DNA from: Allobaculum mucilyticum
GTDB taxonomy: Bacteria > Bacillota_I > Bacilli_A > Erysipelotrichales > Erysipelotrichaceae
Assembly (NCBI RefSeq): GCF_022701195.1
Contig: NZ_CP078089.1
Location: 372,001-436,000 of the forward strand
Length of the DNA: 64,000 bases
Direction: 5' to 3'
In this document: piece after piece, positions 32,470 through 36,785 of the stretch
Position numbering within the stretch: the first letter of the stretch is position 1
How the letters are laid out: each line of letters opens with the position of its first letter
Translations under genes and position numbers: made by a program
Notes under the pieces: generated by a model
Told to the model about the DNA's origin: nothing
What the model saw: the letters and a program-made list of their open reading frames with translations, nothing else
Databases searched by the model: none

Positions 32470-32545
32470 GGATCCTTAGCTCAGCTGGCAGAGCAACTGA
32501 CTCTTAATCAGTGGGTCTAGGGTTCGAATCCCTAAGGATCCACCA
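32470..32545 (+). tRNA. tRNA-Lys, anticodon CTT
   Basis: A full cloverleaf is visible: acceptor GGATCCT with AGGATCC, D stem GCTC/GAGC, anticodon stem ACTGA/TCAGT around CTCTTAA, T arm TAGGG-TTCGAAT-CCCTA, discriminator A and encoded CCA (32543-32545). Anticodon CTT reads AAG. It has its own promoter and terminator. Confidence 0.97.
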
Positions 32546-33561: not shown

Positions 33562-34167
33562 TTGAAACTATATATGATCCGGCATGGTCAGACAAGCCGG
33601 AACCTTGAAAACCGCGTCCTTGGCCGCAGCGACCTGCCCCTGGACGAAACCGGTCTGAATCAGGCCAGAGCGGCTGCCAGGTCTTTAGCGGACGTGGAGT
33701 TTACAGCCGTCTATTCATCACCGATGCACCGGGCGATGCAGACTGCACAGGCCATCATGGATGCAAACCATCATCCAAAAAAAATTCAGAGCGTACCGGC
33801 TCTGATTGAGCAGAATTTCGGCGTATTCGAAGCGTATCCAAGAGACGATGCCCAGTACCAGAGCGAAAAGCATCAGTACTTCAAGCCATTTGAAAACGGC
33901 GAATCCTTTCTGGATGTCGCTGCCAGAGTCTATTCTTTCCTCGATCAGCTGATCGCATCATCCTCTCCGGATGAGGCCGTTCTTATTGTTGCGCATGGCG
34001 GAGTGTGCCGGGTCATCGAAAACTACTTCCATGGCATGGACAACGAAGAATTCGCTTCCTATTTCCTGAAAAACTGTGAAATCCGCCAGTTCGATACAGC
34101 CGATCTTCACCGGGATACGCTGAAACCTCTTGAAGAACAGAAAGAGAGCGGCTCATGCAGCCGTTAA
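33562..34167 (+). CDS. Histidine phosphatase family protein (phosphoglycerate mutase-like)
   Basis: 201 residues. Catalytic YMIRHGQTSRN at the N-terminus (His about residue 8), YSSPMHRAMQTAQAI with the conserved Arg, and the second His in VLIVAHGGVCRVI (about 149). Members remove phosphate from small molecules; the substrate is not known. I accept TTG 33562 with AGGAG 11 bases upstream; ATG 33574 would cut into the conserved RHG strand. The stop overlaps the next gene by 13 bases, so the two are probably co-translated. Confidence 0.9.
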   Translation: MKLYMIRHGQTSRNLENRVLGRSDLPLDETGLNQARAAARSLADVEFTAVYSSPMHRAMQTAQAIMDANHHPKKIQSVPALIEQNFGVFEAYPRDDAQYQSEKHQYFKPFENGESFLDVAARVYSFLDQLIASSSPDEAVLIVAHGGVCRVIENYFHGMDNEEFASYFLKNCEIRQFDTADLHRDTLKPLEEQKESGSCSR

Positions 34168-36662
34168 CAACCGGCATTCTTGCTCATGTCGATGCCGGAA
34201 AGACAACCTGTATTGAAAGCATGCTCTTTACAGCCGGCGTTCTGAAAAAAGCAGGACGCGTCGATCATCAGGATGCCTTTCTCGATTTTGATGAGCAGGA
34301 ACGCTCGAGAAAAATTACGATCTACTCCAAACAGGCCGGTCTGCCCTGGAAAAATCGGGCGATCGATGTCATCGATACCCCGGGTCATGCGGATTTTTCG
34401 GCAGAGATGGAGCGGACACTCTCCATTCTCGATACCGCAATCGTTCTGGTCAGCGCATTAGACGGCGTCCAGTCCCATACGCGTACAATCTGGAAATGTC
34501 TGGATGCCTATCAGGTTCCGGCAATTCTGTTTGTCAACAAGATGGATATCACGACTCGAACAAAAGACGAACTGCTTGAAGACCTGCGCAAAAACCTGTC
34601 TGAACATATCGTCGACTTAGAATCCGATGACGCGATCGAACAGTTTGCGGCTCTCGATGAAGACCTTCTCGAAGAATTTGCACAAACAGGAACGCTCTCC
34701 AGAGAGTCCATGATTTCTGCCGTCCAGTCGCGCAAAGCTTATCCGGTCCTGTTCGGCTCTGCCCTGAAGAATGACAACATTGCAGCTCTGCTTGATGCGC
34801 TGACGATTTATTCTCCGCCAAAAGAGTATCCGGAAGAATTCGGCGCCCGGGTCTATAAAGTCACCGGCGATGCATCCAATCCGCTTGTCCATATGAAAAT
34901 TACTGGCGGCAAGCTGCATGTCCGTGATTCGATCGGCGATCAGAAAGTCAATCAGATTCTGATTGTTCATGGTCAGTCTCAGAAGGCTGTGCAGGAAGCA
35001 GAAGCCGGTCAGGTTGTCAGCGTTAAAGGTCTGGACGGACTTCAGGCCGGCGATGGTCTGGGCATCGAAAAGCATTCGGCTGCCCCGCTGCTCTGTGCCA
35101 GCCTGAATTACGAGCTGATCCTGCCCGATGGTGTCGATCCGGTTTCCATGATGAGCGGTCTGCGGACGCTGATGATGGAAGATCCGTCTTTGCAGATTGA
35201 ATTCAATGAAGCCAGTCAGGCGATTACGATCCGGCTGATGGGCGAGATCCAGAAAGAAATCCTCAAAAAGCGGATCGAAGAGAAAACCGGCGTCTCTGTA
35301 GAATTTGGCACCGGAAAAATTGTCTGCCTGGAAACCATCACCGAACCTGTCTTCGGCTACGGCCACTTTGAACCGCTCCGTCACTATGCAGAGGTTCATC
35401 TGCTGCTTGAACCTGGCAAGCGCGGTTCAGGAATGACCTACTCTTCCCGTGTTCCGCGCGATGTTCTCTCTTTAACCGTTCAGCGCCAGATTCTCAGTGC
35501 GCTGTCTGATCATACCCCTAGAGGTATTCTTGGCGGATTTGCCCTGACGGATGTTCATGTCATTCTTGCAGCCGCAAGAGTCCATCAGAAACATACCCAG
35601 GGCGGCGACCTGCGCCAGGCAGCTGACCGTGCACTGCGTCAGGGTCTGATGAAAGCTGACTCAGTTCTGCTTGAACCGTTTATCCATTTTGAAATTGAAA
35701 CGCCATCCGAATCTCTCTCCCGCATTCTGTTCGAACTCGAATCCCGTCAGGCCTCTGTACAGGTTGAAGAACAGAATGACGCCCGTATGAAAGTGAGTGG
35801 ACGCGGTCCGCTGCGCCTGCTGATGAACTTTGGCAGCGAGCTGCCTTCCCTCTCCAAAGGACGGGCTTCGTCGACAATCGAAAACGACGGCTATGACGTA
35901 TGCAGCTCACCTGAAGAAATCCTCGAACAGCGCGCCTATGATCCGGAACTTGACCGCCGTCATCCGGTCGGTTCAGTCTTCTGTTCCAATGGTGCCGGTC
36001 ATTACGTCCCCTGGGATGAAGTAGAAGACCATCTGCATATCCCTGTTGTGAGCGATTCTTCCACAGTCGTCAGCACCTCGGTCAACTCGGGAAAAGTCAC
36101 GCAGGAAGAACTCAACCGCGTCTTCAATATGGCTGGCGGTTCGAACTCCAACACGAAAAAAGCGGCATCCAAACCAAAGCGCACCGAGCTTTCTCTGGAG
36201 CCGTCCAATGTAAAAACCTTCTCTTCCCTGCCGACGGTATTAATTGTCGATGGCTACAATATGATCTATTCCTGGCCCTCTTTAGCCCAAGCCCGCGCTC
36301 ATTCGCTCTTTGCGGCCAGAGAACAGCTGATTTCTATGCTGACAAACTATCAGGGCTATAAGGGCTTCTCGCTGATGGTTGTCTTTGACGGAAACCACCG
36401 CAAGGATAATCCGGGATCGACTTCCCGCAACGGCTCAGCATCGATCATCTATACGCCTTCCGGTATGAATGCCGATTCCTGGATTGAAAAGAAGACGGCA
36501 GATCTGAAAGGCAAGTTCCGCGTGATTGCCGCGACCAGCGATGCGCTGATCCAGAACTCTGTCATCAGCCACGGAGCCATCCGAATCTCTGCCCGAGAGC
36601 TTGAACGTCAGGTTCTTTCGGTCAATGCCAGTGCGTTCAAGGCTCTTAAAGAAATCCGCTGA
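34155..36662 (+). CDS. TetM/EF-G-like translational GTPase fused to a Rae1/YacP-type NYN ribonuclease domain
   Basis: 835 residues. Residues 1-645 are a ribosomal-protection-type GTPase: G1 AHVDAGKTT, switch I SRKITIYSKQ, G3 DTPGHADF, G4 NKMD, G5 GSALK, then EF-G domains II-V ending like TetM (LSKGRASSTIENDGYDV). A 45-residue linker leads to residues 692-825, a YacP/Rae1 NYN domain: LIVDGYNMIYSWP, AREQLISMLTNYQGYKG, VVFDGN, ADSWIEKK, ATSD and ISARELERQV; acidic residues at 699, 745, 774 and 796 match the family's catalytic set. Rae1 of Bacillus cuts mRNA in the ribosomal A site, the site EF-G-like factors enter. I infer a ribosome-docked mRNA endonuclease; tetracycline protection is not shown. 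The start overlaps the phosphatase gene. Confidence 0.88.
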   Translation: MQPLTTGILAHVDAGKTTCIESMLFTAGVLKKAGRVDHQDAFLDFDEQERSRKITIYSKQAGLPWKNRAIDVIDTPGHADFSAEMERTLSILDTAIVLVSALDGVQSHTRTIWKCLDAYQVPAILFVNKMDITTRTKDELLEDLRKNLSEHIVDLESDDAIEQFAALDEDLLEEFAQTGTLSRESMISAVQSRKAYPVLFGSALKNDNIAALLDALTIYSPPKEYPEEFGARVYKVTGDASNPLVHMKITGGKLHVRDSIGDQKVNQILIVHGQSQKAVQEAEAGQVVSVKGLDGLQAGDGLGIEKHSAAPLLCASLNYELILPDGVDPVSMMSGLRTLMMEDPSLQIEFNEASQAITIRLMGEIQKEILKKRIEEKTGVSVEFGTGKIVCLETITEPVFGYGHFEPLRHYAEVHLLLEPGKRGSGMTYSSRVPRDVLSLTVQRQILSALSDHTPRGILGGFALTDVHVILAAARVHQKHTQGGDLRQAADRALRQGLMKADSVLLEPFIHFEIETPSESLSRILFELESRQASVQVEEQNDARMKVSGRGPLRLLMNFGSELPSLSKGRASSTIENDGYDVCSSPEEILEQRAYDPELDRRHPVGSVFCSNGAGHYVPWDEVEDHLHIPVVSDSSTVVSTSVNSGKVTQEELNRVFNMAGGSNSNTKKAASKPKRTELSLEPSNVKTFSSLPTVLIVDGYNMIYSWPSLAQARAHSLFAAREQLISMLTNYQGYKGFSLMVVFDGNHRKDNPGSTSRNGSASIIYTPSGMNADSWIEKKTADLKGKFRVIAATSDALIQNSVISHGAIRISARELERQVLSVNASAFKALKEIR

Positions 36663-36750: not shown

Positions 36751-36785
36751 AGCGCCTGACTGCTCAGATCGAGCGGTCAGGCGCT
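36751..36785 (-). terminator. Hairpin between convergent genes
   Basis: AGCGCCTGAC (36751-36760) and GTCAGGCGCT (36776-36785) with an inner GCTC/GAGC pair. On the minus strand it is followed by GTTTTCTG, so it probably ends the lipoprotein gene at 36829; it could also slow plus-strand transcripts. Confidence 0.65.

What the first reader, a model, noticed from the sequence alone, without database searches (positions are those of the whole stretch)
34155..36662. TetM/EF-G-like GTPase fused to a Rae1-type A-site mRNA endonuclease domain
Seen: one open frame of 835 codons with all five GTPase motifs, EF-G domains II-V and, after a linker, a complete YacP/Rae1 NYN domain with its acidic residues. 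Known: Rae1 cuts mRNA in the ribosomal A site, and ribosomal-protection GTPases enter that same site. Inference: the fusion delivers the nuclease to the A site in a GTP-dependent way, forming a ribosome surveillance, rescue or stress factor and not a plain tetracycline-resistance protein. The 13-base overlap with a histidine phosphatase gene hints at a two-protein unit.
Basis: partly seen in the sequence, partly recalled or inferred. Interest (0 to 1): 0.8.

Follow-up and report, generated by a model that had tools for sequence, protein, structure and literature searches.

The report
Tet-like GTPase fused to Rae1-type nuclease
This bacterium makes one protein that joins a ribosome-type GTPase to an enzyme that probably cuts messenger RNA on ribosomes; such fusions were already in print in 2015, but they turn out to be widespread and usually the genome's only copy of that enzyme, and what they do is untested.

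Summary
In detail: window 34155-36662 (+) is one 835-codon frame with EF-G/Tet-type domains G to V, a ~65-residue linker and a YacP/Rae1 NYN domain with its four Asp residues; it lacks about the last 28 residues of B. subtilis Rae1. The fusion is not new: Atkinson 2015 (PMC4342817) reported it in ten Clostridiales. Added here: (1) it is common in Clostridia and the window's relatives, and the trees are compatible with one origin; (2) it is usually the only YacP, and none of 80 fused Clostridia genomes searched has a separate copy of the sister GTPase, which 19 of 65 standalone-YacP genomes have; (3) the TetM domain IV tip is replaced (Pro509 by Lys in 108 of 111 rows), so it is not filed as a tetracycline-resistance protein; (4) in a related genus the protein is reduced in two ways: domains IV-V lost (two genomes), or the whole GTPase lost (six genomes), five of these six NYNs starting at the conserved linker motif. 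Best reading: a Rae1-type endonuclease tethered to a translational GTPase. Ribosome binding, cutting and any GTP control are inferred. The histidine-phosphatase pairing was seen only within the genus.

The parts
34155..36662 (+). 835-aa Tet/EF-G-like GTPase-linker-NYN fusion gene, stop included
34167..34817 (+). G domain, residues 5-221 (AHVDAGKTT, DTPGHADF, NKMD, GSALK)
   Evidence: Pfam GTP_EFTU 3.7e-50; of 111 rows, P-loop, switch and PGH residues identical in the 108 that cover them, NKxD in the 109-110 that do, S202 is Ala in 4
34878..35060 (+). domain II, residues 242-302
   Evidence: Pfam EF-G_D2
35142..35309 (+). domain III, residues 330-385
   Evidence: Pfam EFG_III
35331..35657 (+). 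domain IV, residues 393-501
   Evidence: Pfam EFG_IV
35583..35615 (+). domain IV tip HQKHTQGGDLR, residues 477-487, in the place of TetM loop III; Lys479 at TetM Pro509
   Evidence: alignments
35664..35909 (+). domain V, residues 504-585
   Evidence: Pfam EFG_C
35910..36038 (+). conserved C-terminal extension of domain V (GSVFCSNGAG...W..V...H), residues 586-628; the NYN-less sister GTPases end here
36039..36233 (+). linker, residues 629-693
   Evidence: no Pfam domain; 70 residues between positions 628 and 699 here, 53-181 in the aligned rows, median 82
36096..36140 (+). linker motif (VTQEELNRVFNMAGG; consensus d.EL..IF.rTyG), residues 648-662
   Evidence: at the N-terminus of five of six GTPase-less NYNs
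36234..36659 (+). NYN_YacP (Rae1-type) nuclease domain, residues 694-835; Asp699, Asp745, Asp774, Asp796
   Evidence: Pfam 1.2e-36; PDB 5mq8/5mq9 YacP 1.1e-19; Asp mapping; identical in 111 of 111 rows
33562..34167 (+). histidine phosphatase gene overlapping the fusion gene by 13 bases; a neighbour, not a conserved partner
   Evidence: His_Phos_1 8.3e-46; neighbourhood test
36751..36785 (+). 15-pair hairpin after the gene, terminator-like with a weak T run

Best explanation
The gene makes a Rae1-type ribosome-dependent mRNA endonuclease tethered to a translational GTPase of a Tet-like clade that is distinct from the tetracycline-resistance proteins. The GTPase binds the factor site of ribosomes with a vacant or stalled A site. 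It brings the NYN nuclease, on a linker of about 65 residues, to the mRNA at or near the A site. GTP hydrolysis then lets the protein leave. It takes the place of a separate rae1 gene and serves in mRNA quality control or stress decay. Shown here: architecture, intact catalytic residues in both halves, purifying selection, distribution compatible with one origin, near-exclusivity with separate rae1 and sister GTPase genes, changed domain IV tip, retention of the NYN where the GTPase is lost. Inferred: ribosome binding, place of cutting, role of GTP, physiology.
For: NYN_YacP 1.2e-36 and YacP crystal structures 5mq8/5mq9 at 1.1e-19. D699/D745/D774/D796 map to Rae1 D7/D53/D81/D104 and, with N702, S795, Q800 and S812, are identical in 111 of 111 rows; P-loop, switch and PGH residues are identical in the 108 rows that cover them (one pair of rows, L068 and L082, is the same protein). 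One YacP per genome as a rule: 250 of 393 Clostridia genomes match at E<=0.001 (249 over the cut-off) and 5 of the 250 show more than one match; in the window's own phylum sample all 39 over-cut-off genomes (of 392) show one. 80 of 80 fused Clostridia genomes hold one member of the close GTPase clade, the fused one, against a separate NYN-less sister GTPase in 19 of 65 standalone-YacP genomes (Fisher p 4e-8, species not independent, genomes taken from the best-scoring listing). The fused label needs one change in the GTPase tree. Atkinson 2015 describes the fusion (passages). That Rae1 acts in the ribosomal A site is stated in passages of PMC6613710 and proposed in PMC10100781.
Against: I found no experiment on any fusion protein (paper searches named in the full report). 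Six genomes of genus g4 keep the NYN without the GTPase, so the GTPase is not always needed. A Tet-type domain IV would itself fill the A site (inference), so both parts cannot sit there at once. The window's NYN lacks the Rae1 C-terminal tail; in B. subtilis Rae1 R166P was recovered among loss-of-function suppressors. The window has Lys53 and Asn772 at places conserved in its relatives. The fused group in the GTPase tree has weak direct support (47), and the NYN-less Ligilactobacillus protein lies beside it; in the NYN trees the fused rows need 3 changes or more. Separate GTPase and separate YacP are not significantly associated in genomes without the fusion (19 of 65 against 2 of 15, p 0.33).
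Confidence: 0.52

Rival explanations
1. Two separate activities are joined only for co-expression: the GTPase has its own job on the ribosome and the NYN cuts mRNA as free Rae1 does; the linker is a passive tether and GTP hydrolysis does not control cutting.
For: The two halves occur as separate genes in other Clostridia, 19 of 65 standalone-YacP genomes. G250 has them as two ORFs overlapping by 4 bases. Six genomes of genus g4 keep the NYN without the GTPase.
Against: The linker is not featureless: the EL..IF.rTyG motif is kept in most aligned relatives, in both IV-V-less proteins and in five of the six GTPase-less NYNs. In 16 of 18 informative YacP-less relatives no Tet-like GTPase is left either.
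Confidence: 0.25
2. It is a tetracycline or other antibiotic ribosome-protection protein with an added RNase, as Atkinson 2015 suggested.
For: Best NCBIfam match is tet_protect. A relative in Agathobacter is annotated as TetM/TetW/TetO/TetS family. About 31% identity to TetM over 595 residues. Distant ribosomal-protection genes can work: G307 of Clostridium saccharolyticum raised the tetracycline MIC 16-fold in E. coli (PMC7725328, table passage), but it is 51% identical to tet(44), unlike this clade.
Against: tet_protect score 380 against a cut-off of 775, while TetM scores 880. The TetM SPVSTPAD loop is replaced by KHTxGGDxR, Pro509 by Lys in 108 of 111 rows. The gene lies among housekeeping genes. 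Two fused genomes also carry two Tet genes each of the canonical level of identity.
Confidence: 0.12
3. The NYN cuts rRNA or tRNA, with the GTPase as a ribosome assembly or turnover factor.
For: Atkinson 2015 cites a proposed role of the domain in rRNA and tRNA maturation and names rRNA RNase activity as a test (passages). Standalone rae1 lies next to mrnC and rlmB in B. subtilis.
Against: B. subtilis Rae1, the closest characterised relative, is described as a ribosomal A-site mRNA endonuclease (passages).
Confidence: 0.09

Closest known systems
Tet proteins with a YacP-like NYN domain (Atkinson 2015, PMC4342817; passages read, not the whole text or its additional files)
   Same: Same domain order, Tet-type trGTPase plus YacP-like NYN.
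   Different: Reported there in ten Clostridiales as a possible RNase-based resistance; the passages read do not mention replacement of rae1, the changed tip or reduced forms. The window lies in another order, by inference Erysipelotrichales: order-mate G421 has the contig length and the protein of Longibaculum muris.
Rae1/YacP of B. subtilis (L161; PDB 5mq8/5mq9)
   Same: NYN core, four Asp residues, SAREL motif.
   Different: Standalone, 170 aa, beside rlmB and mrnC; no linker motif; has a C-terminal tail that the window's NYN lacks.
Tet(M)/Tet(O)/Tet(S)/Tet(W) ribosomal protection proteins
   Same: G to V domain order, 29-31% identity.
   Different: Loop III SPVSTPAD replaced by KHTxGGDxR; other C-terminal extension; outside the clade in the tree; no NYN.
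NYN-less sister GTPase of Clostridia (L176-L194, L196, L197, L204)
   Same: Same tip motif and the same kind of C-terminal extension, ending where the linker begins in the fusion.
   Different: About 650 aa, no linker or NYN; found in 19 of 65 genomes with a separate YacP and 2 of 15 without one.

Membership tests
Rae1/YacP (PF05991) | Profile score over the curated cut-off | tested here: met
   126.7 bits against 24.6
Rae1/YacP (PF05991) | Active-site Asp residues | tested here: met
   D7, D53, D81, D104 equivalents present, in 111 of 111 rows. That D7 and D81 are the residues mutated in print is recalled, from no call.
Rae1/YacP (PF05991) | Standalone protein of about 170 aa with C-terminal tail | tested here: not met
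   Fused; NYN alignment ends at Rae1 residue 142 of 170
Rae1/YacP (PF05991) | Ribosome-dependent mRNA cleavage at the A site | not testable with these tools
   Needs an experiment
Tet ribosomal protection protein | NCBIfam tet_protect cut-off (775 bits) | tested here: not met
   380.4 bits; three other fused proteins 389-431, two NYN-less relatives 379 and 408, TetM control 879.8
Tet ribosomal protection protein | Domain IV loop III with Pro509 | tested here: not met
   Lys479 at that place; Lys in 108 of 111 rows. Role of Pro509: passage of PMC8161019.
Tet ribosomal protection protein | Confers tetracycline resistance | not testable with these tools
   No assay possible
Tet-NYN fusion (Atkinson 2015) | Tet-type trGTPase followed by YacP-like NYN in one chain | tested here: met

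The most novel reading that the evidence does not exclude
A single-chain, GTP-licensed no-go-decay factor. The GTPase tests whether the A site is vacant, then its domain IV gives way and the NYN takes that place to cut the stalled mRNA: a bacterial counterpart of the Hbs1/Pelota-plus-nuclease logic (comparison from general knowledge). Proteins that have lost domains IV and V but keep the GTPase core, linker motif and NYN would be the stripped form in which NYN stands in for domain IV.
Probability: 0.28. Interest if true: 0.82.

Novelty: new member of a known kind. Interest (0 to 1): 0.52.

Why it matters
Clostridia and Erysipelotrichales are major gut bacteria (general knowledge). If the reading is right, many of them run ribosome-linked mRNA decay with a GTPase-nuclease hybrid instead of free Rae1, and a widespread gene annotated in at least one record as tetracycline resistance is mislabelled. 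The natural series, full fusion, fusion without domains IV-V, and NYN without the GTPase, gives ready constructs to ask which part finds the ribosome.

Tried and rejected
Histidine phosphatase as partner: a homologue beside the fused gene in 1 of 111 fused loci (same genus) and about 1 kb away in one more (the 111 hold two repeats, L172 of L103 and L082 of L068, and many loci have short flanks); rejected as a general unit. Other neighbours: clustering 789 neighbour ORFs of 111 loci gave no conserved family; the largest cluster was in 12 loci at mixed positions. Defence system: no PADLOC match for 3 proteins. Virus-borne form: no relative confirmed among 25 pattern matches in viral contigs. Of two 'Bacteriophage sp.' records with full-length matches, one (L274) is flanked by UvrD, FeoB, MraW, tRNA-synthetase and carbohydrate-kinase genes, so it looks like mis-assigned bacterial DNA; for the other (L273) two flanking ORFs were tried and gave no Pfam match.

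A link between separate YacP and separate sister GTPase in genomes without the fusion: 19 of 65 against 2 of 15, p 0.33; not shown.

The first tree of the reduced forms lost L242 and L251 to a pattern that was too strict and wrongly labelled L058, L059 and L060, which are other genera, as g4. It was rebuilt with all rows and right labels; the conclusion stood. My label 'OtrA-like' for an unannotated Streptomycetaceae stretch looks wrong: it groups with EF-G.

Structure prediction could not be run, so nothing is said about where the NYN sits relative to the GTPase.
Full report
OBSERVATION. The frame 34155-36662 (+) reads 835 codons from ATG to stop. Pfam gives GTP_EFTU, EF-G_D2, EFG_III, EFG_IV, EFG_C and NYN_YacP in that order, each over its curated cut-off. 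Two YacP crystal structures, 5mq8 and 5mq9, match the NYN part at 1.1e-19. In a pairwise alignment with the annotated B. subtilis Rae1, D699, D745, D774 and D796 fall on D7, D53, D81 and D104. The alignment stops at Rae1 residue 142 of 170, so the window's NYN lacks the Rae1 tail. The window also has Lys53 where Gly is at least 90% conserved in switch I and Asn772 where 110 of 111 rows have Thr or Ser. The genome is one contig of 3,144,153 bases and holds one YacP. Against the nearest relative (65% identity in the GTPase part, 68% in the NYN) changes are mostly synonymous: pN 0.245 and pS 0.766 in the GTPase part, pN 0.260 and pS 0.821 in the NYN; synonymous sites are near saturation. Neighbours are housekeeping genes: IF3, L20, thymidylate synthase and dihydrofolate reductase, which I recognised in the translations without a family search; phosphofructokinase; adenylosuccinate lyase further off.

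ALREADY IN PRINT. Passages of Atkinson 2015 (PMC4342817) state that Tet proteins of ten Clostridiales species have acquired a YacP-like NYN RNase domain, and suggest an RNase-based resistance. Paper searches showed no other paper on the fusion, but they cover open-licence PMC text only, and four of them listed only the top of their hits (20 of 50, 20 of 162, 15 of 185, 15 of 112). The Rae1 papers of 2017 and 2018 are not held, so I cannot say whether they mention it. In PMC7725328 (passages and one section) six predicted ribosomal-protection genes were tested in E. coli; nothing in what I read says that any belongs to this clade, and the one with a clear rise in MIC, G307, is 51% identical to tet(44).

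DISTRIBUTION. In the window's own phylum sample, 39 of 392 genomes have a YacP over the Pfam cut-off, each with one match, and 3 more have weak matches below it. A class sample of 296 adds one more genome over the cut-off. Of these 40 genomes 39, all but the window's own, were fetched: 38 have GTPase and NYN in one ORF, one of them (G058) without domains IV-V, and one (G250) has two ORFs overlapping by 4 bases. Of these 80, 72 are fused in one ORF and 8 are not. By my reading of the 8, two are cut near a contig edge (L102, L106), three are broken into two frames (L110, L136, L151), and three are standalone (L118, L119, L144). A stricter count (closed ORFs over 560 aa) leaves 70, of which 32 are Lachnospiraceae and 13 Oscillospiraceae by record title. 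In Clostridia (393 genomes) 250 match at E<=0.001, 249 over the cut-off, and 5 show more than one match; those extra matches were not examined. The listing was cut at the 150 best rows: 65 standalone, 80 fused, 5 in between. The ratio is that of the best rows, not of all.

THE FUSION STANDS ALONE. All 80 fused Clostridia genomes of that list hold one member of the close GTPase clade, the fused gene itself; none shows a separate NYN-less sister. Two of them (G525, G619) also carry two Tet genes each at 29-32% identity, the canonical level. Of 65 standalone-YacP genomes 19 hold the NYN-less sister GTPase, as do 2 of the 15 YacP-less genomes searched (15 of 143, taken in listing order). Fisher for 0 of 80 against 19 of 65 gives 4e-8, but species are not independent. 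Of 20 listed YacP-less relatives of the window, 2 (G236, G442) gave no candidate at all, not even EF-G, and are uninformative; of the other 18, 16 have no Tet-like GTPase and 2 (G443, G467) have one at 30-31% identity, the canonical level.

TREES. A GTPase tree of 86 rows (48 fused, a sample of those in hand) needs one change for the fused label. Direct support for that split is 47, because the NYN-less Ligilactobacillus protein lies beside it; with that protein included it is 99. The NYN-less Clostridial sister group of 22 rows has 97, and TetM, TetO, TetS and TetW lie outside. In the NYN tree (73 rows) the fused rows need three changes, but the tree with them and the split NYN held together is not worse (p-AU 0.85). 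One origin is compatible with the data, not proven. The fused rows of the window's family and order fall in one starred set of 22, which fits mainly vertical descent.

TIP AND LINKER. Where TetM has SPVSTPAD, the fused proteins and the sister GTPases have KHTxGGDxR. At TetM Pro509 the aligned set has Lys in 108 of 111 rows, with one Ala, one Ser and one gap (110 distinct proteins). A review passage places Pro509 in the tetracycline site (PMC8161019). NCBIfam tet_protect scores 380 bits against a cut-off of 775; three other fused proteins score 389-431 and TetM 880. The NYN-less sister proteins end at the conserved YMH element. Beyond it the fused proteins have 53 to 181 residues, window 70, before the first NYN Asp, with one conserved motif, d.EL..IF.rTyG.

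REDUCED FORMS. In genus g4 of the window's family, 32 of 36 genomes have 33 NYNs. By open-frame length 23 are full-size (5 of these 23 were fetched and seen as one ORF), 2 are cut by a contig edge (G905, G906), 2 lack domains IV and V (G058, 594 aa; G885, 603 aa; 64% identical), and 6 are short, 201-218 aa, with no GTPase part. The IV-V-less proteins keep the G motifs, the linker motif and the NYN Asp residues. Five of the six short ones (G895, G903, G910, G907, G880) start directly with the linker motif (KK[DE]E[LI]..V[YF]NSLY); the sixth, G902, has a longer and less similar start. No Tet-like GTPase was found elsewhere in these six: the best other matches are 4.6e-28 to 1.3e-19, against 1e-91 or better for the fused genes of the same genus searched along with them. 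Four of the six assemblies are only 72-78% complete, two are 94-95%. In the rebuilt NYN tree the five lie in a starred set of 5 (95) inside a starred set of 13 g4 rows (99) that also holds full fusions; G902 is placed loosely, in no starred set. Grouping the six with the 24 true standalone YacPs is rejected (p-AU 1e-10). None of those 24 starts with the linker motif (6-31 residues before DGYN). So the GTPase was lost secondarily there, and the NYN is the part that is kept.

MECHANISM. Best reading: a ribosome-dependent Rae1-type endonuclease tethered to a Tet/EF-G-like GTPase (0.52). The GTPase probably helps to find or license stalled ribosomes; the short forms show that this help can be dispensed with. 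Domain IV of a Tet-type factor and the NYN could not both fill the A site at once, so a sequential or alternative arrangement is needed.

VERDICT. Architecture known since 2015, function untested; a new member of a known kind, with new comparative evidence.

Noticed in passing
L056:3950-5734 (-) and L240:1450-3261 (-): Natural fusion proteins of 594 and 603 aa that lack domains IV and V but keep the GTPase core, linker motif and NYN.
   Followed up: partly
L239, L241, L242, L243, L232, L244: Six short NYN proteins in genus g4 without the GTPase; five start at the linker motif of the fusion.
   Followed up: partly
L057:4926-7417 (+): GTPase (684 aa) and NYN (146 aa) as two ORFs overlapping by 4 bases.
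   Followed up: partly
L176-L194, L196, L197, L204: An unnamed NYN-less Tet-like GTPase clade of Clostridia with the KHTxGGDFR tip; function unknown, outside the canonical Tet group in the tree.
   Followed up: partly
L163:1619-4420 (+): Agathobacter rectalis fusion annotated as TetM/TetW/TetO/TetS family resistance protein; probably a mislabel.
   Followed up: no
L274 (MT835514.1): Record labelled 'Bacteriophage sp.' carries a full-length fusion among bacterial housekeeping genes; it looks mis-assigned.
   Followed up: partly
Clostridia genomes G604, G658, G692, G767, G853: The five genomes with more than one YacP match; the extra matches were below the listing and not examined.
   Followed up: no
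window 32470-32545 (+): tRNA-Lys (CTT), the only RNA gene found by ARAGORN and Rfam in the window.
   Followed up: no
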